Positions 9,474 to 51,208 of a DNA stretch of 64,000 nt are shown here, one piece after another; position 1 is the stretch's first letter, and each line of letters begins with the position of its first letter. Location: assembly GCA_036971615.1 (NCBI GenBank), contig JAYKKR010000012.1, forward strand, positions 744,001-808,000, written 5' to 3'. Below the pieces are notes generated by a model that worked only from the letters and a program-made list of their open reading frames with translations, was not told the origin of the DNA and did not search any database. A program made the translations under genes and the position numbers. The stretch is from Amyloporia xantha. Its lineage: Eukaryota > Basidiomycota > Agaricomycetes > Polyporales > Adustoporiaceae.

Positions 9474-11441
9474 TCAGACGCGATTATTGTGAGCCCCACG
9501 CAGACGTGAGCTTTGTCGTCGCTGTGAGGGAGCCTGTACAGACTGCGCTGCGCGCTCAGCACGAGTCGGAGCGCGGAACACAGGTGGACGGACAAGCTCG
9601 TCAGGAAGGACTCGGTTTGCTACGACGCCCGCATTCTGGGGTCCTGCAGCTGGTTCCTCCTCCATGTCGGAATCATCGGAAAGCATGATTCCCAACAAGA
9701 GTAGGACGCTCTCCGAGTCCTTAAGGTCTTCGTCCTCGTCCTCCGGAACGGGACTCATCATCCTGCCTTTGCCTTTGTCGACTTTGACGACACCATTTAC
9801 GCTAGGGCCGGCCTGGTCTTGGCCTGCCTTCCCGGTGCGAGATTTCTTCGTCTTCCTCACCTCCTCCACCTCTCCCGTTTGTTCACGATCCCTAGAGCGC
9901 TTGCCGTTGCCATTGACCTCGGCGGGTGGATTCATAACATTTGCCATTCGCTGCAGGATCGCAGGGTCAACTCGGGGTCTGAATCACATTTATCAGCTCC
10001 AACTTTCCAACAACGATGACAATGGTCCCGCTTACCGTTTCTGGGCTTTCTTTGAGCCCTTGCCGGCTTGACGCTCCTCCGTTTGACCCTCCGGCTGATC
10101 CTTCGGTTGGTTCTCCGTCTGCTTCCTTTGTCCACCCTTCTGACCTTTAGATCTTAGAAGCAGAACAATCAGCGAGCCAGCACTTCATCGAAAGAACCGC
10201 ACTCACTGTTCCAAAGGCGCCACGTAGTTCATCGACTCTTCATCTGAGGCCATTTCAAGAATATTGCCATCCTCGTCCTGCCTCGTTCGTATCGGACCAT
10301 CGTACATCTCCTCTTCCGACCAGTACGCACTCTTGTTTTGCCAGTACGTCAAGTACCGCACCGCCCGGATGCGCATCGCCTTCTCTGCGGCAATCTGCCG
10401 TCGCAGGGCCTTGATTTCACGCAGCTGCCTCTCCGCGCTTTTGCGCATTACCTGCGACTCGGCGTATCGAGCGCCGTTCTTCTCCGAGATCGCGCGCATC
10501 GACCGTACCGCACGCTTCAGGGCTGCATTGCTTGCGGGCTCTGGGTCGACGTCCGGGTCCGACTGGTAGGAGCGGTAGGAATATACTCCCGAAGACGCGG
10601 CTGACGGTGGACGAGCTGGCTCTGCTTCTGCCCCGTTAGGTTGTGCCTGAGCAGCTGCAGGCTGAGGCTCAGGACCCACTCCGACGCCACCCATTTCGTC
10701 GTCGGCCGCGTGCGTCTTGCCACCGAGCCATGCTCTGACAAGATCGACTCCAGGTCCTATCATACGGAAGACTACTTAGTAGCTGTGCTGCACGGCGGTA
10801 CCACCAACCACTCACCATTGACACGTATAATACGTCGAGCGGCTTGTTGCCCACTCGGACCGGCGACGGGCTCTGCACCGGGACCAGCGACAGGTGCAAC
10901 GCTAGGACCTGCGGCAGATGCTTGCTCGGGATTTGGAGTATGTCTGGTTTCGGCCGCTACAGCTGGCGCTGGTGCAAGAGGAGCGTAGAAGGCAACGCGT
11001 GGCACTGCTAATGGACTCGAATCCCTCGAATCCGGGGTGAATCGAGGTGACGGAATTGGCCTTCGCGGCGCGCCTGAAGCGCTTTCATATGGCATGCCAT
11101 TTGTAGGTTGTGGTGTCTTTAGAGTGAAGACTGCGTCAGGTGGGATTGCAGGACTCGGGTTGTGGCTTCTCTCCTTCCGGTCGGGACTCCTGGAGGGAGT
11201 GCGGCTGATCACTCTATGGTCAACAGCTGTTGTGGCGCGATTTGAAGTAAACGTACGGGACACCACTTGGATATAGCCTCAGAAGTCGTTTTATTATAAC
11301 TGTGCTCTTCAGAGTTGCGTTGATTTTGTTCGCCTATGGGATAATATAAGCCCAGTATGGAAAGAAGCAAACACCATGCCTCACCTTAGCCAATTTTTGG
11401 ATTTCGGCGCGTTTGAGAGCTCCAAGGGCGTTAGCGTCCAT
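9474..11441 (-). CDS. SAP-like family member 1 (divergent)
   Basis: Six exons on the minus strand: 11441-11385, 11333-11257, 11213-10816, 10756-10207, 10144-10036 and 9978-9474. Exon 1 is 57 nt and encodes MDANALGALKRAEIQKLAK. Exon 2 encodes a segment with KSTVIIKRLL and YPSGVP. Together these give the same SAP-like module and intron phases as the five relatives. The remainder differs. It has a long Pro/Ser/Ala-rich linker, then an Arg/Lys-rich coiled coil in exon 4 (AERQLREIKALRRQIAAEK, a Tyr/Trp-rich stretch, then acidic residues). Next come a Gln/Lys-rich basic stretch and a nuclear-looking tail with RKTKKSR and an acidic SDDSDMEEE run. It is probably a nuclear protein of unknown function. 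It precedes hydrolase A in the same orientation, mirroring member 5 and hydrolase B. Confidence 0.75.
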
Positions 11442-12038
11442 TGTAGATGGGGGTAGGGGTTCAAAGTTGAGAGTAAGGGGGAATCGAGAGTTCGACAAGA
11501 TATCAAGGGCGGTGCCACTGATGCCTTGACCACAATCGAGAACAATGCGAGAGACGATGGCCTAAGCACTGATCACGCCGACCCGATTCAGAATAATCCC
11601 TTGTTGGTTAGTTGTTCTACTCGTTTCCATAGAAAATCACACGAAGCTAAGGGCTTATGCAATCCGGCTGTCCTACTGAAATTATTGTATCGACGCGATC
11701 TATTCAAACGCTAAAGACGCTGTGGCGTTCAAACTTGATTTCCGGTACCGTCCATTCATTCAGGGATCAAGGCGAGACCATATGCGTCCGTAAGAAACAT
11801 TTCACGTCAGAATGTCTCTGGCATCTTATATTGAGATATCACAAGGAGGACTATACTTGAGCATGCGGATCCCGCAAAGACGCGCATTGGTACGCGACGC
11901 GTCGAGCACGTGAACATGGTGTACCAACGCAAATCCATTTATTATTTGAAATCACGATACATTTGGTAAGGACTTGGAAGCTGGTACTGCGAAACGATAC
12001 GTGATGTAAATCTATCAGACTGAAAGGGGACAAAAACA
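11442..12038. other. Intergenic region between member 1 and tRNA-Leu
   Basis: No coding signal. Probably contains the promoter of member 1 (minus strand). I see no strong TATA box. Confidence 0.5.
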
Positions 12039-12147
12039 TGACAAGAGTGGGATTTGAACCCACGCCTGGATACCCAGATGAGAAGACCCGCTAAGCAGGC
12101 AAGCTTTCGCTTGAGTCACACGCCTTGGACCGCTCGGCCATCTTGCC
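12039..12147 (-). tRNA. tRNA-Leu (CAA anticodon) with intron
   Basis: On the minus strand the gene starts GGCAAGATGGCCGAGCGG and ends with the T-arm GTGGGTTCAAATCCCAC and acceptor TCTTGTC plus an A discriminator. The acceptor stem pairs at all seven positions, one as G-U. CTCAAG gives a CAA anticodon. The roughly 27-nt insert immediately 3' of the anticodon, and the long variable arm (CTGG-GTAT-CCAG), match eukaryotic intron-containing tRNA-Leu(CAA). One anticodon-stem pair is not ideal. Confidence 0.88.
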
Positions 12148-12435
12148 TTAAGGTGGGAGCACGGACATACTATTTTGACCTGTCATAAATATATGAATTA
12201 GATAATTGCAATTGTCTTTTCTTGTTCTCCCTTCGTGGTTACTTGCACTTCGCTGTTGTTTCCGGTGCTATCGTTGCACTGTCAGTGAACAAGAATCGAA
12301 GGTCAGCGAAATAAATGCGAGAGACCGGCCCGAGGCAACGTTGTCACTCCTTGGACCAGTGCCGCAATGCGCATTGCCACTGGCCCCCTGCATCGCTTTG
12401 ACTATTGACTGGTCGGAGTGGCGTTGTACATCGTG

Positions 12436-12441
12436 GTATAA
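12436..12441 (+). promoter_or_regulatory. TATA-like box (TATAAG) of member 2
   Basis: About 92 bp upstream of the ATG at 12528. Members 4 and 5 have TATA boxes at comparable distances (107-112 bp). Confidence 0.45.
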
Positions 12442-12527
12442 GAAGGGACTGCCAGCCGGTGACCGCGATCTGAATTGATTCATCCCCATCAAACAAAAGC
12501 CACTGAACACCACTTGCACCCACCAAT

Positions 12528-13710
12528 ATGGACGCGTTGACTCTTCGTACCTTGTCCCGCGCACACATCCAGAAACTCGCCACGGTGCGTGGCGCTATCA
12601 GTTCTATGCCAGCACGTGTTTACGCTTTCCAATTTACAGCGCGAAAACATCAGACCTAACCTAAGGTCCGAAATAATCATCCAACGATTGCTCGCGAGGC
12701 ATCCACACGGAGTACCGCTGTGAGCACCCTTCCTAGAAAGACAGCCGTGGCGATTGGCGAATCATTCATCACCCTTTAGGTTGGAGGCAGCCACACCGTC
12801 ACCGGAGGAGATTGAGGGGAGAAGCTCAAAACGGATCAAAATCGAGCCTGTTGAAATCGACGTAAGGAGCTTATTCTCAGGTGAGACATTCTCCTTTGTT
12901 TAGAAGTGCGCCTGACATGGTAGTAGCAGGAAACCATGCGCCACAACCAACGGGATATCGATTGGATGATGTCACATTGTACAGGATGCCAGGTATACCA
13001 TGTTTCACATTGGCAATCGCACCCCAGGAGCTGACCGAACCACAGGAGCGTCGCAGGACGACGCGGGGCAACGGAAGGTCGCGGGGCTGAACGTTACTCG
13101 CCAACTGGAAACACCCCCAGAGACGGTGCCTTCCCATGAGATGGACATGATACGCGAACATGGTATGCAAGGCAGTTACACAATCACTCGATGAGGAGGC
13201 TACGTACTAATGACATAAACAGTGTGGCCATTCACGACAGAGAATGGCTTTGACCGGCAAACACCAAACGAGGCCCACAGAAGACCCCGACAGACAGCCA
13301 AGCGTAATAGGTCTAGAGGGTCAGAGACGCATGTTGGAGAGGGCGTATCCGAGCGGAGAACAAGACCCAAGGCCGAAGTCATCGGTGCCAGCAAAAAGGG
13401 CGCGCGTGCGATCCTGCGAGAGCTGAGGCGCATGGTTGACGAGGAGGAAGTCAAACAATTCCGCATGGAGGAGCTACTCGTGCTCACGAAGGAAGTCATA
13501 ATACAGCGAAACAAGTCCCAGAAGGGGCTTGAGACGCTGCGGGGAAAGAGGAAGCTGATCGAGAGACTCTACCTCTCACAGCTCAAGAGAGATGAGCGGT
13601 TGTGGGATGGCTCACGCGGATGGACCGAGGAGCCTCCGAAAGAACGACCTAGAGCAACATTTAATGGGCTCAAAATTAGAATCCCGCCGAGAAATGGGAC
13701 GCGATTGTAG
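12528..13710 (+). CDS. SAP-like family member 2
   Basis: Exon 1 (12528-12584, 57 nt) encodes MDALTLRTLSRAHIQKLAT. Exon 2 (12640-12719, 80 nt) encodes REN..PNLRSEIIIQRLLARHPHGVP. Exon 3 starts at 12780 and carries a basic RSSKRIKIEPVEID segment. Further small exons lead to the last long one (about 13222-13710). This contains the family coiled-coil block: KKGARAILRELRRMV, EVKQFRMEELLVL, GLETLRGKRKLIERLYLSQL, KRDERLWDGSRGW, then GLKIRIPPR. The frame stops just after GTRL. The DNA beyond still reads SKGKSRMSD like the other copies, so the basic tail seen in members 3, 4 and 6 seems lost by a premature stop. TATAAG lies about 92 bp upstream of the ATG. Confidence 0.75.
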
Positions 13711-13851
13711 TCGAAGGGCAAGTCGAGAATGTCAGACAGCGCCGCGAGTTGAGAACGAAGCGCTGTGGAGACAAGTCGCTGGGCGTACGGAAGCACTACT
13801 AATCTATGGCATAGACACTGAGCCATACGGATAGACTAATGTTATACCAGA

Positions 13852-15012: not shown

Positions 15013-15402
15013 AGACTTAATTGTAGCATATTAGCGAATAATTCGGTAGTTTTGTGATAATTTGACTATCTTACTGTTGGGCCTACACCTTCTCTGCCAC
15101 TGCGTCGGTCGGCCTATGGGTTAGAAAAAATTATCGGAGAGCTAACCAGGCCGTCAGCCTTCGTGTGACGACAGTGAACCGAGAACGCTGTTACCTCGAG
15201 CAGCTTAACGCGTCGCGTCGCGTCACGCCCGTCGGACACAGATAGGCACGTGATCGCAACGGAGGCCACACTAGTCTGTGGCTCGTTTGTGGCCAAACGC
15301 GTACAATACAACCGCCACTCCTGCCAAAGCTCGTTCAACTGTCACCTCACCTCTGCGCATCATATTTACCTGAACCAAAAAGTCAACCTCACTATTACTG
15401 AA

Positions 15403-16739
15403 ATGGACGCCGCAATCTTAGGCAAACTTCCACGGCCGGAGCTTCAAAGGCTCGCTAAAGTGAGTATTGCCGTCCACAACAACTGAGAACGTTGGCTCTG
15501 ACGCAAAACAATTCACTTACAGCGAGAGCAGATTAAAGAAATTGAAAAAAGCGACCTAATCATCAAAAATTTACTTGAAAAATACCCAGAAGGTGTTCCT
15601 CGGTACGCACCTGCTTGTCCCACTACATCTCAGGTCGGCTTACATCGTATTCACGAGTATAGCGTGAAAAAGGAAGAGCGAGCACGGAGGAAGTCGACCA
15701 GGCTTGAGAAGATGAAGATGAAGGTTGAAGAAGAGGATCAGAACGTTCCTGCGTCTGCAGGTGAGGCATACTCGGAAGGCACTGTTGATGAGCAGCTCTA
15801 ACAATGTCCTTTAATTTGGCAGGGAACGTCATCAGTCTGAAGATCACTATTCCCGCGATAACAGCGCGGCGCAGGAAAGGAGAGACATCTGAAATGCGTA
15901 ATGAAGCTGTGCGAGGTATGCACGAGTCGCCTGTAGGATGTACAGCCATTAACTGCTACAGTAGGTCCAGCGGAGGTCGTACACGAGCCACTAGTGAGCA
16001 ATCGCTCGCCACACCAGCATGTACGGCAGGTCCTTGGAGACCGCACTCTCGATAAAGAACCGGGTGCAGAAAGCACAATCAGGGGCGCGTCGAAGAAAGG
16101 TGCGCGGGGAATCCTGCGTGAATTGGCGCGGATGGTGAACCGCGATGAAGAATTGGAGTTCCGTACTACGGAGCTCTACACGGTTGTCAGAGGGGTCGCC
16201 ATTCAGGCGAAAAAAGCTGGGGAGGAGCTAGAGAAGCTGCAGGCTAAAAGAAGGCTGATTGGGAGCAAGTATACTTCTCAATTAGAGCAAGACAGCAGAC
16301 TCTGGAATGGAATCCACACGTGGAGGGAGGATGAGCAGGTGGAGCAGGAGGCATTCGAGGATGGTGAACTGGATGGCCATACGAGCGGATTGAAGATTAA
16401 AATCCCACCGCAGGTCCCCATGATGAGCTCCAAGGCGTTGGGAAAGAGAAAGGTGAGAGACTTTGGGGAGGAAAGGTACGTGTCATATCTGTGGCACCAG
16501 CTCTGGATAACGATTCACGATGATACACTTGCAGACCGACGCAGCCGACTCTTGACGAGTTTAAGGAAGGGGCGCAACGGCATGACCGCTTTATGCCAAA
16601 CATTACATTTACAAGGTTGGGAGGGCCAATTATTCCACCGGAGGAGGCCCCAATGCAGACCACATTGAACGATGAAGCGCCACCGAAGCCCAAGCGCGCG
16701 AGGATCGCGAGAGCAAAGCCACGAGCTCATAAGATGTAA
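15403..16739 (+). CDS. SAP-like family member 3 (full architecture)
   Basis: Exon 1 (15403-15459, 57 nt) encodes MDAAILGKLPRPELQRLAK. Exon 2 (15523-15602) encodes REQIKEIEKSDLIIKNLL plus KYPEGVPR. Exon 3 encodes the basic/acidic segment RRKSTRLEKMKMKVEEED. Two small exons lead into the last-but-one exon carrying the coiled-coil block: ASKKGARGILRELARMV, EELEFRTTELYTVVRG, LEKLQAKRRLIGSKYTSQL, DSRLWNGIHTW, then GLKIKIPPQ. After an intron (GTACGTG...TTGCAG) the last exon ends with a TTLNDEAPPKPKRARIARAK tail that looks like a nuclear localisation signal; TAA at 16737-16739. The SAP-like start suggests nucleic-acid binding and the coiled coil suggests self-association. Both are inferences and no function is known to me. 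Confidence 0.8.
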
Positions 16740-17069: not shown

Positions 17070-17133
17070 CACGCATTGACCAGCGCTTCATGCACTGAAC
17101 AATCTTGTACCATTTCTTCACCATCACCGTCAT

Positions 17134-17170: not shown

Positions 17171-18073
17171 ATGGACGCCACGACTCTTCGCACCTTGTCC
17201 CGCGCACAAATCCAAAAGCTCGCAAGGGTATGGGCCACTTCGCAGCAGTGTTTCGCCTCTTTGTCGAAGCTGACAATGACCATTCCTCCACAGCGCGAGC
17301 AAATCACAGCAAACGTAAAGACGGAAATCATGATTCGGCAGCTTGTGGCCATGTTTCCGAGTGGCGTGCCTCCGTATTTATTTATTCCCCTCCTGTCATA
17401 TAGCTGCACTGCTGACCTTTGTCCTTCTCGCATCAGCTTGGAGGAGGAAAAGCCACAACAGAGAAGATCGGCTCGCATTGAGAAAATCAAGACGACCGTG
17501 GCGGAAGAGAACCCTCCTACAGCAAGGAGCGTATCGGCAGGTGGAAGATGTCCTGTCAGATGCGTCCGACGAGATAACTGACCCTGCATCAGTAGCCAAC
17601 TGCCCGACACCAGTGAAGGGAAGACGCGTAGCGCCCCGTTCGCGGCGGGAAAAAGGGAAGGCAAAATCTTCAAAAAAATCCGTCGGAGGTATGTAAAAAG
17701 GTTAGCTTGCCGCGGCGGTGAGGGCTGACTGCAGAATAGAACAAAGGGCAGTCGAAGAGGACGTCGCGCAAGAACCGGTCGCTGGAACAAGCTCCCCCCC
17801 TGACGAAGATCACCCGTTATGCAGCGATGAGCAGGACGAGCAACCAGGTGATTATTGATACGTAACACATTAGAAGACATCCACTGAGGCGGTGACATTT
17901 TCCGTTGATCAGCAGAAAAAGCAGCGATACCACCTGTGGTAGCACCCATGGAACCATTGCCTAGGTTCAGAGGGTCGAAACGTCCACTAGAGGACGTCCC
18001 AACATGGACGACATTGGATGACAGGTCGCCACCGAAGGCCAAGCGCATGCGGGTGGCGAGGTCGAGAAAGTAG
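17171..18073 (+). CDS. SAP-like family member 4 (lacks coiled-coil block)
   Basis: Exon 1 encodes MDATTLRTLSRAQIQKLAR (57 nt). Exon 2 encodes REQITANVKTEIMIRQLVA and a MFPSGVPP end. Exon 3 encodes a basic segment (RRSARIEKIKTTVAEENPP). Further exons read KGRRVAPRSRREKGKAKSS, an acidic/Pro-rich stretch, and finally RGSKRPLEDVPTWTTLDD then SPPKAKRMRVARSRK before TAG at 18071-18073. The tail is homologous to that of members 3 and 6. The KKGAR...LREL coiled-coil block found between the linker and tail of the others is missing. It may be a deletion or an alternative paralogue form. A good TATA box and the conserved leader lie upstream, so expression is plausible. Confidence 0.7.
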
Positions 18074-18606: not shown

Positions 18607-19578
18607 ATGGACGCAATAACTCTTAAGACGCTTACCCGGGCTCAGATCCAGAAGCTCGCCAAGGTACGTGGGGCATCGCGCGAGTCCTGCATGATGTCGT
18701 CGTTGATTGAGACTGTTGATCCCCAGCGCGAGCATATAGCAGCCAACGCGAAGAGCGAGAATATCATCCGGCAGCTTGTTGCCAGATACCCATATGGAGT
18801 TCCCCGGTAAGGACTGCTCTTGTCTGGTGTCCCCGCAAACCCGCTGACGATGATTTTCCTTCCAATAGCTTAGGGGAAGAGAAGCGAGCGATGATGGAAG
18901 AAAGCACCCCTATCAAGAGGGTAGAGGATGTCAAAGGAAAGGGGAAGGCGCGGGAGGTGAGAAGTAACGGGCCAGGTGAGCTTTGTCTCTCGCATTATAT
19001 CGCCAACGTTTTCTGACACTGGGGCAGAGCCAAGCACGCCGAGACAAGGGCGCGCGGGGCACGTCGGATCTCAATCCGACGACGGTGCAGAGGTGGTGGC
19101 CTCATTCTTGGCAGCACTTGCCGGTAAGCTAACACTGCCAGTCTAGGTATACATATGCACTGACAGAAAACAAGTGGCTCAGGCTCAGCACTTGGCCGCG
19201 GGTCCCAGCAGGCAGTCGATAGACGCCGCAGTGCAGGAGGTGAAGAGGATGGAGCGGGATGATGCCCCGGAACGCCGCCTCAACGAGCTCCATACGCTCG
19301 CGGACGGCATCGCAAGCGAGGCGGTCAGGGCCATGGAGGGTCTGACCGAGGTGCAGAACAAGAGGAAGGTGATCGAGAGGCGCTACCTCTCACAGCTAAA
19401 GCGTGATCACCGCTTGTGGGACGGCAGGCGTGCCTGGAGGGAGGGCGAGCAGCCCGCGGAGCCTGTGCCGCAGAAGCAGACCAGCGGATTCAAGATTAGA
19501 ATCCCGGCGCGGGCGGCGGGGCAGAGCTCCGAGGCCCGAGGAAAGAAAAGGGCGGCGGATGACATGGACGCGTGGTGA
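18607..19578 (+). CDS. SAP-like family member 5
   Basis: Exons: 18607-18663 (MDAITLKTLTRAQIQKLAK), 18727-18806 (REHIAANAKSENIIRQLVA, YPYGVPR), 18869-18975 (EEKRAMMEEST.. basic), 19028-19123, and a last exon from 19175. The last exon has a shortened coiled-coil block: AAVQEVKRMERDD, ERRLNELHTLADGI, LTEVQNKRKVIERRYLSQL, KRDHRLWDGRRAW, then GFKIRIPARAAGQ. The frame stops after MDAW, or one codon earlier if the GTGAGT donor is used, because the splice then creates TGA. Either way the basic PPK.KR tail is lost. It lies upstream of hydrolase B in the same orientation. Its 3' part is copied again at 20546. Confidence 0.78.
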
Positions 19579-20545
19579 GTATTGTTCTACAATGACGCTT
19601 CTGCCAGCAAGTCCGCTAATGAATGCGATGTAGACCGGTCGACGCGGACTAATAGGGGGCTGCAGAAGCAGTCGAGGTGGTCCACTGTTTCCACAACATG
19701 ACTTCCCAACTCTCCCAGCGGGGAGCCCCTAGCAATCTTCGCAGAGTCTTTGGAGGTTTGAGCGCAGCGACGGATTCCCCTCCTCCAATACCTCATGCAT
19801 TACCAAGAAATTCCCCAGTGATCTAGCTATTCTGGCATGCATCGCGGGTGGAAGTCCAGACGTGCATCAGCGACGAGATCGGCGCAGCAAACGCGGAGAC
19901 AATGGATCTTGACGATATCTCGACCCCTGCTGCCAATGAACAGAATCGGCCAGCCGTCGTCAGACATCTAGTGCGAGGATAACCAACAGCATTGGGTACC
20001 AAGGAGTCGCAAGGATGCCTAACTCACTTGGCACATCCCACGTGCATATTGAGGTGCGTATCCTGTACCGACGAGCTTCGAATGAGACTGAACTTGATAC
20101 AAACAGGTTGCAAGCCTCCCAAGCACACGAAATTACCTATACCTACGGTACAACCTGATTCGTGTAGTATATATGTACCCATAGTGTCGATTTCTGCCTT
20201 GCCTTAAGCTGGGAGTCGTCTTATGCCAAAATTGGAGTCCAGCGTGTTCGACTTGCGGGTCAGGTGTATGCTGTGAACCGTGACTGCGATGCTCTGCGAT
20301 CTTGCCGCGCTTGATCATGCCTGATCGTACTCTGCATGCGCGTCGGTTACAGGTGTCGCTGTCAACTTCATAAACCGTATCATTCAGTGTCAGCTACAAC
20401 GACCATCAGTGTCTTAGTCTTCCAAGTTGGAACCTAAGTGCCCATAAGAGTGCTTTAAACTCACTTAGGTATCCTAGGGTTTGCCTGCGGTGAGTGCACA
20501 GACTGGAACTTCCCAGGGTGCCCATCGATGAATACTTCTGAGTGG
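19490..20545 (+). repeat. Tandem segmental duplication, unit 1
   Basis: Begins in the KIRIPARAAGQSS coding segment of member 5 and ends near the CTTCTGAGTGG at 20545. The same order of landmarks recurs in unit 2: CGGCGCGGGCGGCGGGGCA, CCAGCAAGTCCGCTAATGAA, GACGAGATCGGCGCAGCAAA, GAGGTGCGTATCCTGT, CTTCCAAGTTGGA, GAACTTCCCAGGG. Confidence 0.75.
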
Positions 20546-20640
20546 ATCAAAATACCGGCGCGGGCGGCGGGGCAAAGCTCCGAGGCTTGGGGACAGAAAA
20601 GGGCAGCAGATGGCATGGACGCGGGGTGAGTATGGTTCCA
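20546..20640 (+). pseudogene. Truncated 3' fragment of family member 5
   Basis: Reads KIPARAAGQSSEAWGQKRAA followed by DGMDAG and the same GTGAGTATG donor-like sequence as the end of member 5. There is no upstream module, start or coiled coil. It was created by the tandem duplication. Confidence 0.8.
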
Positions 20641-21420
20641 TAACGACACTTCTGCCAGCAAGTCCGCTAATGAATGCGATGTAGACCACTTGATGCAGAC
20701 CACGGAAGTCCGAGCATGCGCCAGTGACGAGATCGGCGCAGCAAACGCGAGGATGGTTCTTGATGATGTCTTGACCTCTAGTGTCAATCAACATAACCGA
20801 CTAGGCGACATCATTGCGATGAGCCGTCCATGAGATGTAGCCCATTAGGAAACTTCAAGAGTGGTCTTCGTGACTTCATCGGGTGCAAGGGTGTCTAACT
20901 CACTTGACAGATTCCGCGTGCATGGTGAGGTGCGTATCCTGTCGTGCAAGCTTCGAATAAAGTCCAACACTGAGCAAACAGATTGTTAGCTTCGCAAGCT
21001 GGGCTGAGACATACGAAAACACATATACCTGCGGTACAAACGCTCCCCCTTCCTCCCACACACATAGTCACACACATAGTAAATAAGAGACCGTGCGTGA
21101 TATGTGTGCCATATACTATGGATTTCTGAGAGCAAGGAGTCGTCAAAGGTAGTGTGGTCGAAGTGTGAGGCGATCTTAGGCCCCTTGCGCCTAGCGCCTG
21201 AGGCTCGGCGTCGGCTCGGTGCCCTATGTCAGTACCAACTCAGCTGGAGGTACCGTCACCAGTACCCTTGCCGAGTATGACGACTATCAGTGTCTCAGTC
21301 CTCCAAGTTGGACCCTCAGTGCTTATAAGAATGCACTAAACTCACTAAGGCTATCCTATTAGCAGCACGAACTTCCCAGGGCGCTCATAGTCTAGATCAT
21401 ATATACTTCTGCGCTCGAGC
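20546..21420 (+). repeat. Tandem segmental duplication, unit 2
   Basis: A diverged direct copy of unit 1 with indels; it lacks roughly 200 bp present in unit 1. It ends about 40 bp before the ATG of hydrolase B. Confidence 0.75.
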
Positions 21421-21457: not shown

Positions 21458-23570
21458 ATGTCCTCTGCTCTCGTCTTAAGCTCAGCAGTCACTGCTGCTA
21501 TCTCGCTATACGCCTTGCTGAGAGTTGCAGGCTTCTTCTCGCAGTACTTTTCCCCCAAGCTTCACTATGCAGATTCTCCGGTGACCCTGACGGTGAAAGG
21601 TGCGCCTGGGTCGAAAGAAGTGCAAAGGGAGTCCTTGGCAACGTTCGTAAATACAAGATGTCCGAGTCTGTTCAAAGGATTCCGACCTCCATGGTGGCTC
21701 TTCAGGTCTGCCTCTATTTCACTTCAGACAACTTCTGCAATGTTAATATGACCTCGGATACAGCGGTCATCTGCAGACAGCTTATTCTGTTATTGGAGAT
21801 TTCTCCAAGGTTGACAAGGTGGAATATGAGAGGTGAGCAGAAACCCGCGAACTGAATACAAGCACCCCGGCGACGACTCGTGCGAATCTGATAAAGAACT
21901 CTATGATGACTATCTCATGAAGCTTCTCACAGCATACGTGACGCTCGAGAGGTCATCGATCATTTGTCTCTTCGCTATGGTGGTCAATATCGAGGTGTGC
22001 CATAAAATGAGACAGTCATCATCATAAAGGGCACGCGCTCTGACACTCGTCACTAATGTGGTGTAAATCTGATATGGACGAACGAATGCAGTAGATGGAT
22101 GGGCGCATGAACGTTGACATTGCGTCCAAATATCTTCGCCATCGATCATATTGAGCATCTATGTGGACGAGACATGCAACTGACTGATATCCCAGAACCC
22201 TGCTTCGTACCCTAGACGGTGGAACGTTGTGAGTCAGCCCGTGTTGAAAGTCACAGACACACTTCTGATGCGCCGATTAGAGGTTTGGACTTTACCCCGC
22301 CGGAAAGTGTCCGAAGACTCCCAGATGACACGCCTATAGTCGTTGTCCTCCATGGTTTGACAGGCGGTATGACAACATGATCAACAGGAGCGCTGTATGT
22401 TCACAAAATCTTGTATTAGGTTCACATGAGGCATATGTCCGCGCTGTCGTAGCACCGGTCTGCACTCCGGTGGATGAAGGTGGCTTGGGATATCGTGTGG
22501 TGGTAGTCAATTTTCGTGGATGTGCGTTGATTCACCGGAGATATCTCCAGAATGTACTTACGAGTCACCACTCCAGGCGCTGGGATCCCAATCACCAGTC
22601 CACAGCTCTACTCCGCGGGGAACACCCAGGATATCCGGGTGGCGATGTACTATATCAAGAAGAAATTCCCGCGGGCGCCCCTCCTAGGATTGGGATTCTC
22701 TCTAGGAGCAAACGTGATGACGCGATATCTTGCGGAGGAGGGGGAGGATAGCCGGATAGCAGCGGCCTGTGCCGTGGCTTGCGTAGGTTATGCAATCGGA
22801 TATGCTGCATACCACTCTGACTATCCTGTCATACTAATCTAGCCCTGGGATCTGCTGAAGAATAGCGAGGCGTAAGCGGTCTCTTTCAGCCTCCATGCAT
22901 TCTCACGAAGTCACTCATTGTCCATTTCCTCAGATTGGAAGGCGGGTGGTTCCATCGTACAGTCTATTCCAGCGCTCTCGGGTCCAATTTGCAAAACATG
23001 GTCCGCCGGCATGCTTCCTCCCTCAGCAAGTTCTCGGATACCGCAGTGGGCCAGGCTGTCGCGCCTTGTCTGGCAATGAAATCACCCACGATGGAGATGT
23101 TTGACAACACCTTCAACCGTTTCGGCGGCGGGCCTTCGCCTCCGTTCCCCTTCCCCAACGCACAGGCGTATTATGTCTGGGCTTCTAGTCACCACTGTCT
23201 GCCTCAAGTCCGCGTACCGTTCCTCGCCATCAACTCCGAGGACGACCCGATCGTGCAGGTGCTCCCCGTGGGTGCGGGCGGGAACACATACGTCGCGTTT
23301 GCAGTCACCAAGAAGGGTGGCCATCTCGGTTGGTTCCAGTCCGGTCAGGGTATGGGAAAGCTCACAAGGTGGTTCAGTCAACCGGTGATGGAATGGCTCC
23401 GGGCTGTCGGGGAAGACATGGAGGTCGGTGATAGGCCGGGGAAGCCGCTACACGAGGTGGACGGGTTCTTGAAAGAAGTAGGCCGGGATGACGTTGGATG
23501 TTTGGAGGTGGAGGTAGGTGGGCGCGTTATAGGAGTGGAGGGTGAAGGTGGTGTTTTACCTGGATTGTAA
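21458..23570 (+). CDS. Alpha/beta hydrolase B (YMR210w/EHT1-type)
   Basis: Paralogue of hydrolase A. First exons: 21458-21705, 21764-21832, 22196-22228, 22281-22366, then from 22420. The N-terminus has a membrane-anchor-like stretch (SAVTAAISLYALLRVAG) missing in A. Motifs in order: SPKLHY, GAPGSKE, WWLFR/GHLQTAYSVIGD, LLRTLDGGT, VVVLHGLTGG, GLGYRVVVVNFRGC, SPQLYSAGNTQDIRVAMYYI, the elbow GLGFSLGANVMTRYL, SEDDPIV and KKGGHLGWF. The Ser-Asp-His triad is complete. It probably esterifies or hydrolyses acyl chains at a membrane. The intron at 21833-22195 is 363 nt, against about 53 nt at the same site in A, so something may have inserted there. The stop is at 23568-23570. Confidence 0.88.
21833..22195 (+). 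other. Expanded intron of hydrolase B
   Basis: GTGAGC...CCCAG, 363 nt. The paralogue has about 53 nt at the identical position (between the codons of EY(E/D)R and TLLRT). No coding potential was seen inside. Confidence 0.65.
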
Positions 23571-43510: not shown

Positions 43511-43959
43511 TGCCGGTCGGTGCCGGACAAATGCCGAGGGTGTTATCCGGATCTCATCGGCCAATCCACTGCCTTGGGTCGGAAGCTGGCTGCAGCTCTC
43601 CCAAAGCTCTCCTGTCGGTGAGATTGCGAAGCCAAACGGAAATTTCAGCGCATTGCATAGCACGTTTCACCGATAGCCATGCAAGTAGGAGGGCAAACTC
43701 TAGCAGTGTATAATCTTCAGGTCGCAATTAATGGAGTGTGTACCTGCTCTGGCCCTGGCCGCTGAAACCTTGAAAAAAAACAAGATAGACCCTCTGTGAT
43801 TCCACAAGAAAACACAATCGACAAGGGATGCATTTATAAAAACTGTCTACGAGGGGAAAACAACTGTGTGTAGTCCAGCGACGCGACTCGACACGACGCG
43901 TCGCGTCCAGGCAGATATACAGACGCGTTTCGGAGATCGATTTGCTTACATAACTCCAA

Positions 43960-44030
43960 AATCGCGTCTTACGGTCGGGCCCATGGAATTTGAGGCAGAC
44001 TACCTTCAACCTTCGTAGGCTCAGGATGTC
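43960..44030 (+). repeat. Dispersed non-coding repeat, partial copy 3
   Basis: GTCTTACGGTC...TTTGAGGCAGACTACCTTCAACCTT is a diverged copy, inverted relative to copy 2 about 450 bp away. The two may be the ends of one element. Confidence 0.45.
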
Positions 44031-44249
44031 CGTTTCTGACAAGTAAGGTGCGTGCTAAGTGCTTACGATCACTGGCGTATCTTAACTTGATTGTCTATCA
44101 GCCCGCGATAAACAGATTGCAATAGACAATTATCTGGTTCCCAGAGGTAGCAGGATCCAGGTACAAGATGCCGGGAACTTACATAAAGTTCCCTAATGGA
44201 ACGTTAACCATCACTGCGACCCAACCTGTCCCGGACCACTGGAGGGACA

Positions 44250-46604
44250 ATGATTCGGATGCTCCTTCAGATAGCAGCTGCGACTGCGGTTATCCAGACA
44301 AGCAGAGCTGCATCTCAGGTGGCCTTTCAGTTGACCAGGACGACGTTGTCCCTCCACCATATCCCATATTTTGTAGCACCCTCTCCAGTTTCTCACCTCG
44401 ACGTGGTTGGCCACGACATATTGCCTCTGGCGACCGACGAAGAGACAGCTGTGAACGGACTTATTCCCATCTCGGTTATACCTACTGTGGAGGCGGACTT
44501 TGGTGATGACGCACTCGCTACGACAGTCCAGACATGGCAAGAGAAAGACGATGTCTGGAACACAGCGTTCCTCTCTGGCATGCCGTTTCACCATGCTATG
44601 CGAGATGCAGGATGCAAACGTGCGTTCTAACTTACAGGAATCTACATCAGTTACAACGGGAACGAGTCGTGCGATGCACCTGCAATCTCGTTAACGACCG
44701 AGTCACAGGAGAAGTACGGTATCAAATTCGTATTCCTGTCTGCGTGCTACATGGGCGGAATCGGCTTGAGGAGAGAACTGCCGTCTGGTCCGTATTTTCT
44801 GGACCCGCTGACGGGAAATATATTCGAAGGTGCACATCTTGCTCGCGACTTCGGAAACCCATCTAACTGCGACTGTGATGCAGCATACCGCCTTTACAGT
44901 GACGAAACGCAGTCTTTCTTGTATGGGACTATTCCCGACGGGAGCGGTGGGTACGACATACTCCCAGCCAAGGTATCCGGGGCTGCGACAGAGACAATAG
45001 GTGTCCCTTCTCGCCTATACTTCACCCCTACGCCGGAGAAACCCTTGGCGGGCGCGCGATTTGCAGTCAAGGATATATTCGACATGGAGGGCCTCCGCAC
45101 AGGTTGCGGGAGCCGTGCGTACTGGGGTTTATATCCTCCGCGGAACAGGACAGCATCTGCCGTGCAGCGCCTGCTTGACGGTGGTCTTGTGCTCGTGGGC
45201 AAGACCAAGACTTCACAGTTCGCCAATGGAGAGCTCGCTACGAACGACTGGGTGGACATCCATGCACCGTACAACCCCCGTGGCGATGGCTACCAGGATG
45301 GCAGCGCGTCGTCCACGGGTTCAGGAACGGCCATTGCAGCGTACCCCTGGCTCGATTACACCGTCGGCAGCGACACGGGGGGATCGATGCGCGGTCCTGC
45401 AGGGGCCAACGGAGTTTTCGGTAACAGGCCATCGCTCGGCGCTGTGTCAATGGACGGTGTGATGTCGATCTCTCCAGAGTTGGACACCGCCGGCATATTC
45501 GCGCGAGATGCAAAGGCATGGCGAGCCATCGGGCATTGGTGGTACCAAGACTTGACTACTGTAAGTGCATCACTGAGCATGGTACCCCGGATCTCAGGCC
45601 GGATCTGTCGCGCAGTACTACCAATTCCCCAAGAGAATTCTCGTTCCTGTGGATTCCTTGAATGACAGCTACCTCACTCATCCGCCGCCTGAGGGAACTG
45701 CTGCAGCAATCTTCGATTCTTTCGTCGAGCGACTCGAAGCTTTTCTGGAAACTACACGTACAGAAGTAAATCTCACGTCGCTTTGGCTCGACACAAAGCC
45801 GTCAAACGTCTCGTCCACCTTGGATGAGATGCTGAACACGACTTATGCTGTTATATTTACGATTGATCAGACATCGCTTGTCGCAGATCCGTTCTTGGCG
45901 GATTACGCGGCGATGAACGACGGCAGGAAGCCTTTCGTTAATCCCGTCCCATTGGCACGGTGGACGTATGGATGGTCGCTGCCTGCGGGAGCCCGTGACG
46001 AGGGCGTTGCGAACAAGACTGTTTTCAAGGACTGGTTCGCGAAGGAAGTGATGATAGGCGGCCATCCGAAGACGTGCTCGGAGAGTATCATAATCTATCC
46101 TCAATCCTCTGGCGAGCCTAGATATCGCAACATGTATCCTGGGTCAGTGATAACGAGGAATAATTGCCTGATGCGCTTCTTCGAAAGCTCGAGAACTCTT
46201 GCTGACGAGCTTTGTACGTAGGTCACCACCCAGTCCACCGTTTGGATTTCAGTCCAGACGCATCGCTGTATTCGCAGAAACTCCAGACATGGTGGTGCCG
46301 AGTACGTCCCTCCGAGGCAGAACCCTTTCATACCTGCTGATACTCACGTTGCACCGTCTGATTTCCCTAGTTGGCGAGGTGCCGTACAACTCTACCATTA
46401 CCGGAAAGACAGAGTACCTCCCGGTGACTGTGAGCTTCATTGCTGCGAAGGGTTGCGTAAGTAAATTCCGCACGGATAAGCGGCATTTCCAGCACTGACA
46501 TATGATATCGACTACAGGACTTGATGCTCTTCGACCTATTTGCCGCTTTGCAGGACGCCGGCATCATCAAGTCTGTCATCACAGGCTCAACGTTGTTCGG
46601 ATGA
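44250..46604 (+). CDS. Secreted amidase-signature protein, copy 1
   Basis: The signal peptide [20 protein letters not shown] starts at 44250. An N-terminal domain of about 150 residues with no obvious catalytic motif comes first, then the amidase-signature domain. The catalytic Lys is in RFAVKDIFD, the cis-Ser in the Gly/Ser loop [10 protein letters not shown], and the nucleophile in [13 protein letters not shown], so Lys-cisSer-Ser are all present. Introns include 44578-44637 (GC-AG), 44830-44883 (54 nt, in-frame and open), 45561-45615, and three short ones near the end. The stop is TGA at 46602-46604. It hydrolyses an amide or ester bond, probably outside the cell or in the secretory path; the substrate is unknown. 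The inverted paralogue is at 51977-54352. Confidence 0.87.
44578..44637 (+). other. GC-AG intron in amidase copy 1
   Basis: The donor reads G|GCATGC where the paralogue has G|GTATGG at the same codon. The acceptor is CTTACAG. Only this choice joins FLSG to IYISYNG in frame. Confidence 0.75.
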
Positions 46605-47427
46605 AGGTGGAAATAGTAGGGATATTTCTTGTAGTCGTCACCATTACCTATTGATGGTTAAGAATGGTCTGGAATCGTTCGTGGGCACGAAGCTCGAGTC
46701 ATGTACAGTACATAGTAAAAGATACCCCACCTTCGTGAAAGGTATCTTTGTCACTCAAAAACTGGAAAGCAGTCACTTTCACCCGCACGGATTTACAGAC
46801 GGTGCACTGCGACGATCGTTGCATACAAAGGGACCACGAAGCAGCGAAGGTCGCTGAATATGACTTCCGTCTCCGCGAGAACCCAACTGAGAAAGATCGC
46901 ATAACGCACTCTGTGTTCCAGGGGATGTTCTAGGGGAGCAATAAACACAGCACCTCGTTGGTCAGAAGCTCGTACGTACGATACATTGCGGTGCCGCCAC
47001 GTACATATAGGGAAGGCTTACTTGACCATGAATAAGGATAGATCCAGAGAATATCACAAATACATATTAAAAATCGCGTAGAATAAAATATCCCAAGAAA
47101 CCGCAACAATGCAGAGACCGTCAACACAACGTCATGAGACGAGTGCTGCCATGATATAGTCGTGTCAAGCCTATTGGCTTGATGGGCATAGTAGTCATGA
47201 AGAGTCGTCGAAGGCCGTGAACGATCGTGAGAGTCGTGACTAAAAGATTGGTAGAGGTTTGACTTGCAGCGGAATTTCGCGGCAGATCACTGCGCAGTTT
47301 TGCGGGGTATGATGCTCGGGAAGGACACGCCGTGGGGAACAAGCGCTCGCCATCGTGCTGCGGGTGCCATACTGCACAGTGCACACAATGTCAATGGACA
47401 CTCGAATTTGACTGAAGACAAATTCAC
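46605..47427. other. Intergenic region between convergent genes
   Basis: 3' flanks of amidase copy 1 and the SUR7-like gene; nothing else recognised. An optional extra last exon of the SUR7-like gene could lie near 47240-47370. Confidence 0.45.
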
Positions 47428-48171
47428 TCACGTCCGATGTGCCTCCTCGTCGTCTTCGCTGTCATCCTCCAGATACTCCCCGCCCACACCGCAGCACTCG
47501 CACACCACGACGCTCAGCAGGATCATCCCCGCCCAGAGGCAAATCACCGCCGCGAGGATCATCCATACTGCCGGGCCCCAGTTCACTGAGTACATATACG
47601 CCGTCAGCGCGGGAATCTTGATGCGCCCAATGATCACCAGCGCGAGGTCCGCTGCGAAGACGAGGCACCCGAGGACGATTGTCACGACTGAGATGACGAG
47701 CGACGTGATCGCGGCTGCGTGGGACTCAAGGAAGAGCGACGTGAATGCACACAGGAACGCGAGCACCGCGCAGACCGGGTGCAGCACTAGAATCACCGTG
47801 ATGCCCTCGATGACACCCTCGACGAGCGACGGGTACCCGGTCAGGTCGAGGATGCTCTCTGGGATGGTGTACCCGAGCCGCGGACCATAGCACGTCTGGA
47901 AGCCGGGCAGGACGCTGTACGCACACACGCCCCACACGCCGAAGCGCACCTCCGTCGCGACCGCCGAGGGCGCCGTGCCGTCTTCCTGCTTGAAGGTGAT
48001 CGAGAAGAGGTATATGGACTGGATAACAGGCAACGAGAGCGCGACGAGCAGGTAGAGCAGGAATGCGATGAAGAGCAGCACACAGGTCGCAATGGAAATC
48101 CCGAGGTGCTTCGCGAGCGGACGGGGGAGGTTGTATTGGCTGAGGGACATGGACTTGAGCTTGAGGGCCAT
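47428..48171 (-). CDS. SUR7/PalI-family tetraspan membrane protein
   Basis: Single open frame of about 247 codons from the ATG at 48171 (MALKLKSMSLSQYNLPRPL). An in-frame ATG 35 codons upstream gives an implausible Cys/Arg/Ser-rich extension. Four hydrophobic segments are visible: CVLLFIAFLLYLLVALSLPV; GITVILVLHPVCAVLAFLCA; ITSLVISVVTIVLGCLVFAA; and WMILAAVICLWAGMILLSVV. The extracytoplasmic loop has FGVWGVCAY and a later Cys (FQTCYGPRLGY), the claudin-like W-C-C pattern of SUR7/PalI (Rim9) proteins. These act in eisosomes/plasma-membrane organisation or ambient pH sensing. The C-terminus is Cys- and Glu/Asp-rich. A GTGAGTG at the stop could splice to a further short exon, changing the last residues. 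Confidence 0.82.
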   Translation of the reverse strand: MALKLKSMSLSQYNLPRPLAKHLGISIATCVLLFIAFLLYLLVALSLPVIQSIYLFSITFKQEDGTAPSAVATEVRFGVWGVCAYSVLPGFQTCYGPRLGYTIPESILDLTGYPSLVEGVIEGITVILVLHPVCAVLAFLCAFTSLFLESHAAAITSLVISVVTIVLGCLVFAADLALVIIGRIKIPALTAYMYSVNWGPAVWMILAAVICLWAGMILLSVVVCECCGVGGEYLEDDSEDDEEAHRT

Positions 48172-49726
48172 TGCGCTACTGTGTCGACGGCGGTGAGAGC
48201 TGAGGGTCGCTGTACAGCAGCTGGGAATGGCGTGGGGCTCTTGAGGTCTGCACCCACGAAGAAGGGAAGCAGCCACGAAGCTTGCCTGATGGACACCGCC
48301 GGATATGGAATATCTTCCATACGAACGTGTGTGCTAGGATTAGGACGGAGGCCCGGCATCAATGAGATTTGTATGGTGAGGGGGAATATGCGGCAGGATG
48401 TCAAGGAATATATATAGATGAAGGGAATATGCCTGGCGCGAGGAGTGCATAGCACCGTCGGCACCACGGGCACCAACCTTCAGCTTTTTAATGTTTCGTT
48501 TAATAGAGAAACGGAAAGGTCACCACACCAATTGAGCAAGCATGCTCAGACAGGACGACTGTTACAGAGGACTGCTGCGAAACTTGATGATTAATGCTTC
48601 AACTAGTCACCAATACTGTCCCTGTGTCAAGTCACAGAACATAGCAATGAGCGCCGTCCCGGACTCCCCGCTTCTGCCTTTTTTGGCAATTTCCCGCCCA
48701 GCGGGCGGCTGCGTCACGTTCCCGCCTCTCTCCAGTGTCCTGTGCCGCTATGCGTTTCGTCATCTCTCTATTCTCGACTTATTCCTGGATATACGTGAAG
48801 TTTACTGCTGCTTGAAATTGACGGATAATTAAGCAGCTTCCCCAGCAGGCCAGTCGCTTAACTTCGTTCTCGTGGGCCGTGGCGACTCGCGAGTTGACCG
48901 TTGAGTCTTTGCTTCGCGTCGCCTGTCAGCACGCTATAGAGGAATAGGACTGCTTGAGCTTTGCGGAAGCGGCAAAGTGCCCATCTTTCATTACCTGCTA
49001 GTTGTCTGCTAGACTCGGAGTGCAGCCATTCAACCCAAATCGTGCGAGTATCCTACGCTGCCTGGAATCGTGGAATATGTTGACTTGGAGGTTTGTTTTG
49101 TCTTCAACTGCGGTCCAGAACTGAAAAAAAGCGCCAGATAAGAGTCCCATTGAATGATGCCATTCCGTTCAAGGTATATGTTGGATCGACCTAGCCATGG
49201 CCCATATGCACTTGGTCTGACCTGGGAACTCTTCAGGTATCAGCGGCAGAGTATAGACGACTATTTCTGTCGCATGAGGTACGATTCAATGGCATCCATG
49301 GTGCAATGATTTAATAGTTGTGGTGCTAGTGCTCCCTTGCCCTAACACCACTGGTGCCATTCCTTGTATGAGTCATTTACATTTCACGTCGCAGGACGAT
49401 CTGGAAGCCCCATGAGCATGGCGGATTCTCTCCTATCTTGGCGCATATGCCAATTACTGGGTGGCGCAGGCATTGCCCGGATACTGTTGCCCGAGAGATA
49501 CGCAATGCTCCAATCACTTGCAGCTTCGCGGCAATTCAAGCCGAGGCCTGGATTGCGGCAGAGGACTTCTTCGGTCATCCTGCAAGTCGCCTATACTTCC
49601 AAGAAACAACCTGTGCGCATGTGTTTTCAGGTTCAAATTTACCAAGTTGTTTCCGAGCTGTATCAACAGCAGCGCTATTGATTCTCCGGTCATGGTTATT
49701 GATATTAAGGTTCAAAGTGCTATCCA
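48172..49726. other. Intergenic region
   Basis: Promoter side of the SUR7-like gene, including TATATATA on either strand at 48408-48416, and the 3' flank of family member 6. No other gene recognised. Confidence 0.5.
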
Positions 49727-51208
49727 TCATCGCCGTCCTTTCTGTGCCGATCTAGTCACTCGTGCACGTTTTAGTGTTGACGGCTGCTCCAGTGTTTCCC
49801 ATGTTGTCAGAGTCGGGAGATTCTGAAGTGGGGAGAGTACCGTTCCAGCCCCGAGCGGACCGTTGGGTCGGAATCGGGCCACACCTGCCAACGCCTCGTT
49901 CAACGAGGATTCGGCTGACCTGCAAGAGCATTCGTTAGCGAATATGCTGGCAGGTACTGTCACGGCGCGATACATACCTTTCTTCCATGTCGTCGATCAT
50001 CCGCTTCTTGCCCTTATCCTTAGAGCTCTGCCATATGGTCTGCAGTGGAATCCTAATCTTGGACCCCTCTGGCTCTGCAGCCTTTTCTTTCCGTGCTTCC
50101 TCCTCTCGCGAGGCATGCCTGCTGTCCCACAGCCTATGATCCCGTTCCACTTTAGGGAGGTAGTCCCTCTCGATCATCTTCCTCTTGGTCTGCAACTCCT
50201 CCAGTCCCTCCTCGACCTCAGCCATCTCGTCCTCAACGTCATCAACGAGCGCATAAAGCTCTTGGACACGAAAATCGATGACCTCATCCTGCCTCACCAT
50301 CGCCGTCAATTCTCGGAGGATCTTCCGCGTTCCTTTCCTTGATGCGCCCGTGATCTTGGCCTGTTTAGGGGCAGAGTCGTCTGTCCCCCGTAATTGCTGC
50401 GACCCAGAGGCTTGGATTTGAGCCTCTGGACCTACTGCATACTGCAATTCTTCAATAGGAGGTAGCTCCACATGCAAAGCTGGATTCCAAAACAACTTCA
50501 GCAGACGTTCGTTGTATTGGATGGAACGGAGAATTACCTCGTGGAGCTTTCGGCTGATCGTAGCTCTCTGATGTGTGCTCCTCGCGAGGGAAGGAGCTCG
50601 GCCCTGCCATCTGTCCCTCAACGCCGTTCCTGCCGACAGTGGCTTGTCCTGCTATATGGTCAACACCTATGCATACCCCAAACTAGCATTTCTGCGTACC
50701 TGTGCCAGATTTCTCATTGACCTCCGCCTTCCTCTTTGGCTCTCGCGAGCGGGACGTTGCGCGTCCTGTTCTTGTCGGCCTGCGACGGCTCGCTTCTGCT
50801 ATGCTGTAAGTCAAGGCTCCTCAAACGTTGGTGAGCGATATGTCTCACCAGCCAATGTGCCCCCGACAGTAGGAGCATCCTCTTCTACTTTGATAGGCTT
50901 GAGCTTTTGCAGGCGAGTTGATTTCCTCGTAATTTTCTTGTCCTCAATCAAACTATGTGACAAGAAGCAACAGTCAGAAGCCTAGCCACGAAGGAGAACA
51001 AAGGTCACGTACGGAGGCACTCCGTCAGGGAATATGGTCACTAGTTGCTCAATTATGTCTACGGTCTTGGCGTTGGCTTTGAGTCCCTCACGCTGCTCAT
51101 GATCATCAGTTTACGACGACCTCATTTGTAGGCCACACATCGTGCACGCACCTGCGCGAGCTTCTGAATCTGGGCGCGAGGCAAGGTGTGAAGCGTTGTA
51201 GCATCCAT
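49727..51208 (-). CDS. SAP-like family member 6 (full architecture)
   Basis: Exon 1 (51208-51152, 57 nt) encodes MDATTLHTLPRAQIQKLAQ. Exon 2 (51092-51013, 80 nt) encodes REGLKANAKTVDIIEQLVT and FPDGVPP. Exon 3 encodes TRKSTRLQKLKPIKVEED. The coiled-coil block follows: GASRKGTRKILRELTAMV, EVIDFRVQELYALVDD, LEELQTKRKMIERDYLPKV, ERDHRLWDSRHASREEEARK, then SKIRIPLQ and KDKGKKRMIDDMEER. A GTATGT intron joins to a last exon (49919-49727) encoding SAESSLNEALAG and a tail with TTWETLEQPSTLKRARVTRS. This is the same order as member 3. It lies downstream of amidase copy 2 on the same strand, about 30 kb from the other members. Confidence 0.8.

What the first reader, a model, noticed from the sequence alone, without database searches (positions are those of the whole stretch)
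9474..51208. Six-member unnamed gene family with a SAP-like N-terminal module, coiled coil and basic tail
Six genes (ATGs at 11441-, 12528+, 15403+, 17171+, 18607+, 51208-) begin with a 57-nt exon encoding MDA..L..L.R..IQ.LA(K/R/T/Q). A roughly 80-nt exon follows with a K(S/T)..II..L motif and an end like (Y/F/H)P.GVP. This resembles a SAP DNA-binding helix-loop-helix split by an intron. Members 2, 3, 5 and 6 share a coiled-coil block with (KRK.IER.YLSQL, RD.RLWDG) and (G.KIRIP). Members 3, 4 and 6 share a TTL....PPK.KR.R.AR-like tail. I know no named family with this order. It may be a lineage-specific set of nuclear nucleic-acid-binding proteins undergoing expansion. Members were found by translating through introns, so ORF-based annotation would scatter them.
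Basis: partly seen in the sequence, partly recalled or inferred. Interest (0 to 1): 0.87.

Follow-up and report, generated by a model that had tools for sequence, protein, structure and literature searches.

The report
Fungal family with NuSAP-like DNA anchor
A genome that is likely fungal carries, within 42 kilobases, six intron-split genes predicted to encode proteins that begin with the same 45-residue module, which resembles the chromatin-binding end of the human spindle protein NuSAP; the module likely ties a predicted helical rod to DNA, in a family that the curated catalogue searched here does not name.

Summary
All six genes can be spliced from the stated starts, with a 57-nt exon 1 and a 77-80-nt exon 2 in matching phases. 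Their 45-residue modules are 44-71% identical. Four (m2, m3, m5, m6) share a block predicted as one long helix, followed by KI(R/K)IP. m1 has its own predicted long helix; m4 has none. m3, m4 and m6 share a basic tail; m5 stops before it.

Pfam has no match over a cut-off. A profile of the six modules finds one SAP domain elsewhere in this genome and the N-terminus of human NuSAP (letters recalled), both ungapped, with 0 of 2000 shuffles reaching either score. It does not recognise eight other SAP sequences, and a generic SAP profile barely sees the modules. So the module is SAP-like of the NuSAP subtype, not a standard SAP.

Searches of this genome added a decayed copy on another contig and a 3' fragment beside m5; members without the helix block could have been missed. 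One relative exists in an unnamed assembly. Synonymous sites are near saturation and the module is constrained where measurable, so the duplications are old.

Likely role: chromatin anchor plus dimerising rod plus nuclear tail. DNA binding is inferred.

The parts
9474..11441 (-). m1: most divergent member, 6 exons, 567 aa; SAP-like module plus its own predicted long helix; C-terminus RRQSSRLRG, no shared tail
   Evidence: spliced model; helix model of exon 4
11385..11441 (-). m1 exon 1 (57 nt), first half of SAP-like module
11257..11333 (-). m1 exon 2 (77 nt), second half of module
10207..10756 (-). m1 exon 4, predicted 73-residue helix, flanked by phase 1 and phase 2 introns as in m3, m5 and m6
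12528..13710 (+). m2: 6 exons, 301 aa; module, helix block, KIRIP; no basic tail
12528..12584 (+). m2 exon 1
12640..12719 (+). m2 exon 2
13223..13710 (+). m2 helix-block exon
15403..16739 (+). m3: 6 exons, 348 aa; module, helix block, KIKIP, basic tail
15403..15459 (+). m3 exon 1
15523..15602 (+). m3 exon 2
15962..16475 (+). m3 helix-block exon, predicted as one 90-residue helix
16535..16739 (+). m3 basic tail exon (TTL...PPKPKRARIARAK)
17171..18073 (+). m4: 6 exons, 201 aa (intron 3 taken as 52 nt); module and basic tail, no helix block
17171..17227 (+). m4 exon 1
17294..17373 (+). m4 exon 2
17913..18073 (+). m4 basic tail exon
18607..19634 (+). m5: 246 aa; module, helix block, KIRIP; stops at the last junction with or without splicing, no basic tail
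18607..18663 (+). m5 exon 1
18727..18806 (+). m5 exon 2
19175..19574 (+). m5 helix-block exon
20545..20687 (+). fragment: partial tandem copy of the m5 3' end (88% DNA identity to 19494-19636), no module
49727..51208 (-). m6: 7 exons, 366 aa; module, helix block, KIRIP, basic tail; a decayed segmental copy lies on contig C23
51152..51208 (-). m6 exon 1
51013..51092 (-). m6 exon 2
49978..50434 (-). m6 helix-block exon
49727..49919 (-). m6 basic tail exon

Best explanation
These six genes are one family whose predicted proteins share a 45-residue N-terminal module that is likely a SAP-type helix pair of the NuSAP subtype and would anchor each protein to chromatin DNA. Shown by sequence: shared exon structure and phases, the ungapped match of the module to one genomic SAP domain and to recalled NuSAP letters, the shared helix block in four members, the basic tails in three, and constraint on the module. 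Predicted: the block is one long helix, which likely pairs with a partner copy to make a dimeric rod. Inferred: the basic tails act as nuclear-import and extra DNA contacts, and the conserved RLWDG and KIRIP pieces are contact points for other proteins. Members keep the anchor and change what it carries: m4 has no rod, m2 and m5 have no tail, m1 has a different rod. Whether they act on mitotic chromosomes (as NuSAP does) or on interphase chromatin cannot be told from sequence.
For: Module profile against the own-genome SAP domain L005 (contig C11): 21.7 bits, 32 residues ungapped, 0 of 2000 shuffles. Against recalled human NUSAP1 residues 9-39: 14.6 bits, ungapped, 0 of 2000 shuffles. With each member left out in turn, L005 scores 16.1-23.8 and NUSAP1 10.9-15.5 bits, against at most 7.1 for 391-416 unrelated ORFs. 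L005 is a borderline Pfam SAP (25.8 bits, over the 23.9 cut-off; 23.8, just under). PF02037 also fails to list the NUSAP1 N-terminus, so its silence on the modules is not decisive. Helix block: residues 44-133 drawn as one helix, mean pLDDT 85-95 over residues 51-100; m1's exon 4 also a 73-residue helix. Heptad core excess reached by 0.4% and 0.9% of shuffles in 2 of 7 windows of the block. dN/dS 0.11-0.23 in the module for the 7 of 15 pairs with unsaturated dS. A relative outside this genome keeps KRKVVERRFLSRLKRDQRLWDG and FKIRIPAR (P0001, E 8.4e-23). NuSAP1's SAP domain is proposed to regulate its interactions with chromatin (PMC10650578, introduction passage).
Against: No module is listed for PF02037; the only Pfam names at E up to 10 are unrelated (AAA_35 in 2 members, best E 0.0055; ImpA_N; DUF4372). 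The module profile recognises 1 of 9 SAP sequences tried. A generic SAP profile gives -0.7 to 3.4 bits on the six modules; 29 to 285 of 2000 shuffles reach those scores. hhalign of modules against four SAP sequences aligned one column. No credible PDB match to the module (two chains, E 0.92 and 1.1). Net charge of the first 50 residues, His counted, runs from +8 (m1) to -1 (m6), so strong DNA binding by every member is doubtful. The module itself was not folded. Foldseek on the helix block gave 2 matches, both E above 7. The heptad signal is absent from 3 of 7 windows and marginal in 2. NuSAP's PF16006 region was not found in the five full-length members scanned.
Confidence: 0.55

Rival explanations
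1. The N-terminal helix pair is a protein-interaction module of the wider SAP/LEM/helix-extension-helix kind, and the family is a set of adaptor proteins that do not touch DNA themselves.
For: Generic SAP profiles hardly see it; module charge falls to +1 in m4 and -1 in m6; the loop glycine seen in 9 of 9 SAP sequences aligned here is absent from 6 of 6 modules.
Against: The closest sequences found are a SAP domain and the NuSAP N-terminus; the m1 and m2 modules are strongly basic.
Confidence: 0.27
2. The locus is an old duplication patch in which most copies are drifting towards loss; there is no shared working function beyond that of one or two members.
For: m5 stops before the tail, m4 lacks the helix block, m2 lacks the tail; the C23 copy is frame-broken with a lost acceptor; a 3' fragment lies beside m5; in the helix block m2-m5 dN/dS is 0.67.
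Against: All six can be spliced into open frames; dN/dS is 0.11-0.23 in the module where measurable and 0.16-0.38 over whole proteins in the 7 of 10 m2-m6 pairs with a finite dS; open frames persist at near-saturated synonymous divergence.
Confidence: 0.12
3. The genes derive from a mobile element whose DNA-binding protein was kept.
For: Clustered copies, a dispersed segmental copy, and a Copia-like element (recalled from its translated frames) in the same window.
Against: Protein searches of this genome show only eight copies or pieces (blind to members without the helix block); introns are at shared phases; the C23 copy lies in a roughly 6-kb segment that also carries an amidase gene; no transposase or integrase name in five members scanned.
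Confidence: 0.04

Closest known systems
NuSAP / NUSAP1 (Pfam PF16006), N-terminal SAP-like domain
   Same: Same spacing with no gap over 31 residues, including (L/I)Q.LA and AN.(K/R)...(L/I)(L/I)..L in several members; N-terminal position (NUSAP1 letters recalled from memory, identity checked by a PF16006 match further along)
   Different: No match to PF16006, which covers a later part of NuSAP; the family has a long-helix block, RLWDG, KIRIP and a TTL..PPK.KR tail, which I do not recall in NuSAP and did not test there
SAP domain (Pfam PF02037), especially the C11 SAP gene of this genome (L005)
   Same: L(K)R..(L/I)..L.K...IKA..K...(L/I)I.(R/Q)L pattern, ungapped over 32 residues
   Different: Pfam's model does not match the modules; loop glycine not kept; the module is split by a phase-0 intron after codon 19, whereas the L005 SAP lies in one open frame
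P0001, 154-aa protein fragment from an unnamed public assembly
   Same: KRKVVERRFLSRLKRDQRLWDG and FKIRIPAR of the helix block, E 8.4e-23; best match in this genome is m5
   Different: Only a helix-block fragment is held; its N-terminal module, host and copy number are unknown

Membership tests
SAP domain (PF02037) | Match to Pfam's curated model over the cut-off | tested here: not met
   None of 6 joined modules listed at E up to 10 (the tool drops most matches above E 0.1)
SAP domain (PF02037) | Sequence relation to a bona fide SAP domain | tested here: inconclusive
   L005 21.7 bits, 0 of 2000 shuffles; the other 8 of 9 SAP sequences not recognised, and the reverse test weak
SAP domain (PF02037) | Helix-loop-helix fold | not testable with these tools
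   The module is split by an intron and the folding tool takes protein read straight from the window DNA; not submitted
SAP domain (PF02037) | DNA binding | not testable with these tools
   Needs biochemistry
NuSAP (PF16006) | N-terminal SAP-like domain | tested here: met
   14.6 bits, ungapped, 0 of 2000 shuffles, against one NuSAP sequence with recalled letters; 10.9-15.5 bits in leave-one-out
NuSAP (PF16006) | Match to the Pfam NUSAP model (later part of the protein) | tested here: not met
   No PF16006 match in five full-length members (m1, m2, m3, m5, m6); m4 was scanned only as its first 70 residues
NuSAP (PF16006) | Spindle and chromosome localisation | not testable with these tools
   Needs imaging
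This unnamed family | 57-nt exon 1, phase-0 intron, 77-80-nt exon 2 ending (Y/F/H)P.GVP, phase-2 intron | tested here: met
   6 of 6 in the window
This unnamed family | Helix block with RLW(D/N) and KI(R/K)IP | tested here: met
   4 of 6 members (m2, m3, m5, m6) and P0001; the decayed C23 copy keeps RLWD and reads KMRIP

The most novel reading that the evidence does not exclude
The locus is an old nursery of chromatin adaptors in mushroom-type fungi: a NuSAP-type DNA anchor, so far known from spindle proteins such as human NuSAP, is kept fairly constant while each copy swaps or drops the rod and tail it carries, giving one genome a set of proteins that bring different partners to the same chromatin.
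Probability: 0.3. Interest if true: 0.62.

Novelty: new variant of a known kind. Interest (0 to 1): 0.42.

Why it matters
If the module is a true NuSAP-type anchor, it gives a fungal foothold for asking where the NuSAP chromatin-binding end came from, and offers a naturally varied set of six anchors to learn which residues bind DNA. It also describes a gene family that unspliced ORF calling scatters and that Pfam lacks. If the module does not bind DNA, the finding shrinks to an ordinary orphan family of clustered duplicates.

Tried and rejected
Pfam scans: no curated hit; weak names such as MCM8 winged helix (E 0.028 at best, same place in three members), DUF3450 (E 0.004, 16.9 bits against a cut-off of 32.6) and AAA_35 (E 0.0055 on a module) fall below their cut-offs or lie far from the family, and were set aside. 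PDB by sequence: module, two chains at E 0.92 and 1.1; helix block, seven chains at E 0.011 and worse. Foldseek on the helix block: two matches, E above 7. Protein database with m6 full length and with the m1 exon 4: nothing. Viral contigs with the helix block: 35 pattern matches, none confirmed. Own-genome stray matches set aside: C12 (E 0.70), C1 (E 0.18), three on C59 (E 0.34-0.39). Exon-versus-intron DNA identity as proof of splicing: too weak to use (exon 1 0.72 against 0.57 shuffled, exon 2 0.64 against 0.57, intron 1 0.60 against 0.53, intron 2 0.59 against 0.54). Trees: the module tree resolved nothing; the helix-block tree joins m5 with P0001 at 90/90 only. Paper searches: SAP domain with Agaricomycetes, and NuSAP with basidiomyc-, 0 papers each; the other five searches held 33 to 1,376 papers, of which 12 to 20 were listed, none about this family by title and start of abstract. 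Not pursued: naming the species, since the tools name no organism for this genome; RKST pieces in m3 and m6 resemble a histone H3 tail stretch or a kinase site (recalled), too short to test. Not achieved: a genome census with the module alone, because the search machine did not answer.
Full report
What was checked. The six proposed genes were rebuilt by choosing GT-AG sites. Exon 2 is 80 nt in m2-m6 and 77 nt in m1. The first three introns fall in phases 0, 2 and 1 in all six. One intron of m4, first taken as 19 nt, was re-set to 52 nt in the same frame. Protein lengths are 567, 301, 348, 201, 246 and 366 residues for m1 to m6.

Is it more than chance? Yes. The 45-residue modules are 44-71% identical, with 15 invariant positions. 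A profile of exon 1 scores the six at 39.8-48.3 bits and everything else in the window at 7.0 or less; exon 2 gives 52.6-59.3 against 5.6 or less; the reversed window reaches 10.4 and 8.6. Each member is found at 58-88 bits when left out of the profile. No seventh complete module showed in the window.

Downstream parts. m2, m3, m5 and m6 share a block of about 105 residues with RLW(D/N) and KI(R/K)IP. AlphaFold2 with four sequences draws residues 44-133 of the m3 exon as one helix, confident in residues 51-100 and poor outside the helix. m1's exon 4, which has no significant sequence match to the block (best E 0.12), is also drawn as one 73-residue helix, and is flanked by phase 1 and phase 2 introns as in m3, m5 and m6. 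A heptad core pattern is clear in 2 of 7 windows of the block, marginal in 2 and absent in 3, so a coiled coil is likely only in part of it. m3, m4 and m6 end in a basic tail. m5 stops at its last junction, spliced or not; m2 stops soon after KIRIP; m4 has no helix block.

What the module is. Pfam lists nothing credible for it, nor does the PDB by sequence. Two stand out: L005, a SAP domain on contig C11 of this genome (21.7 bits), and NUSAP1 residues 9-39 (14.6 bits), both without a gap and with 0 of 2000 shuffles reaching the score. The other eight SAP sequences score no better than 2.8 bits. Leave-one-out profiles keep both. The reverse test, a profile of the nine SAP sequences against the modules, is weak (29 to 285 of 2000 shuffles reach the scores) and is just as weak for NUSAP1 (205 of 2000). 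hhalign against four SAP sequences aligned a single column. The reading is a SAP-like module of the NuSAP subtype, lacking the loop glycine present in all nine SAP sequences. L005 itself is a borderline Pfam SAP: 25.8 bits, 23.8, cut-off 23.9.

How many and how old. Searches of the 46.8-Mb genome with m6, m1, m5, m3 and P0001 find members of the six, one further copy on contig C23 and a 3' fragment beside m5. These searches have a blind spot: m1 was found only by its own query, and m4 only weakly by others (E 0.001 at best), so a distant member without the helix block could have been missed. Queries with the module alone were sent but not answered. The C23 copy is part of a segment matching window 48559-54829 at about 86% identity that also holds an amidase gene. 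It has net frame changes in two exons and a lost acceptor, its exons are no better kept than its introns (exons 83-91%, introns 82-93%), and differences fall at 12.1, 10.5 and 15.7% of first, second and third codon positions. The six genes differ: synonymous sites are near saturation, 8 of 15 module pairs fully so, and in the other 7 pairs dN/dS is 0.11-0.23. At dS above 1 these ratios are rough. One pair is out of line: m2 and m5 in the helix block have dS 0.87 and ratio 0.67, which may mark exchange between them, or relaxed constraint. A relative, P0001, exists in an unnamed assembly (E 8.4e-23); its best match here is m5 and the two group at 90/90. The duplications are therefore old, and perhaps older than the split from that relative.

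How it likely works (inferred). NuSAP1's SAP domain is described as proposed to regulate its interactions with chromatin (PMC10650578, introduction passage read; that paper cites a 2011 study whose title speaks of chromosome loading by the SAP-like domain, seen only in its reference list). By analogy the module anchors each protein to chromatin, the helix pairs copies into a rod, and the basic tail serves nuclear import and extra contacts. The downstream parts vary more than the anchor: module dN is 0.20-0.47 among m2-m6, while whole-protein dN is 0.50-0.72. Against DNA binding by every member: the first 50 residues carry net charge +8, +7, +3, +1, +5 and -1 in m1 to m6, His counted. Nothing here tests DNA binding, localisation or expression.

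Known or new. No Pfam family matches over its cut-off, and the rows listed by the paper searches made show none describing it by title and start of abstract. The parts are of known kinds, so it is a new variant: a fungal family of clustered duplicates with a NuSAP-like anchor. It is not a member of PF02037 or PF16006 by those models.

Noticed in passing
5451-6792 (-) and 22216-23570 (+): Two copies of a gene (about 60% identical over 195 residues in one exon pair) flank the m1-m5 cluster in opposite orientation; they look like alpha/beta hydrolases (recalled), but Pfam named neither exon tested. May mark an old inverted duplication around the cluster.
   Followed up: partly
44208-46221 (+) and 52420-54367 (-): Two amidase genes (Pfam PF01425 for the first) in opposite orientation, 49-82% identical in same-sense protein pieces, lie on either side of m6; the second matches contig C23 in one segment with m6.
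   Followed up: partly
12039-12147 (-): A tRNA gene (109 nt, long enough to hold an intron) between the divergent m1 and m2 genes, found by Rfam and missed by ARAGORN in bacterial mode.
   Followed up: partly
13546-13611 and 19360-19425: m2 and m5 are 85% identical in DNA here, with unusually low dS across the helix block; possible gene conversion between them.
   Followed up: partly
upstream of 12528, 17171, 18607, 51208: TATA-like strings 91-133 bases before the ATG in m2, m4, m5 and m6 (m6 only ATACAAAG), none by the same patterns in m1 or m3; m4, m5 and m6 share a 5' leader containing GAACTTCAACG.
   Followed up: partly
L005 1459-1857 and L006 (contig C11, about 10 kb apart): Two SAP-domain genes elsewhere in the genome with equal SAP scores; L005 is the closest SAP domain found to the family module.
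   Followed up: partly
59733-62313 (-): Copia-like retroelement pieces (recalled from the translated frames, no family search) with a 219-base stretch repeated at 99.5% identity.
   Followed up: no
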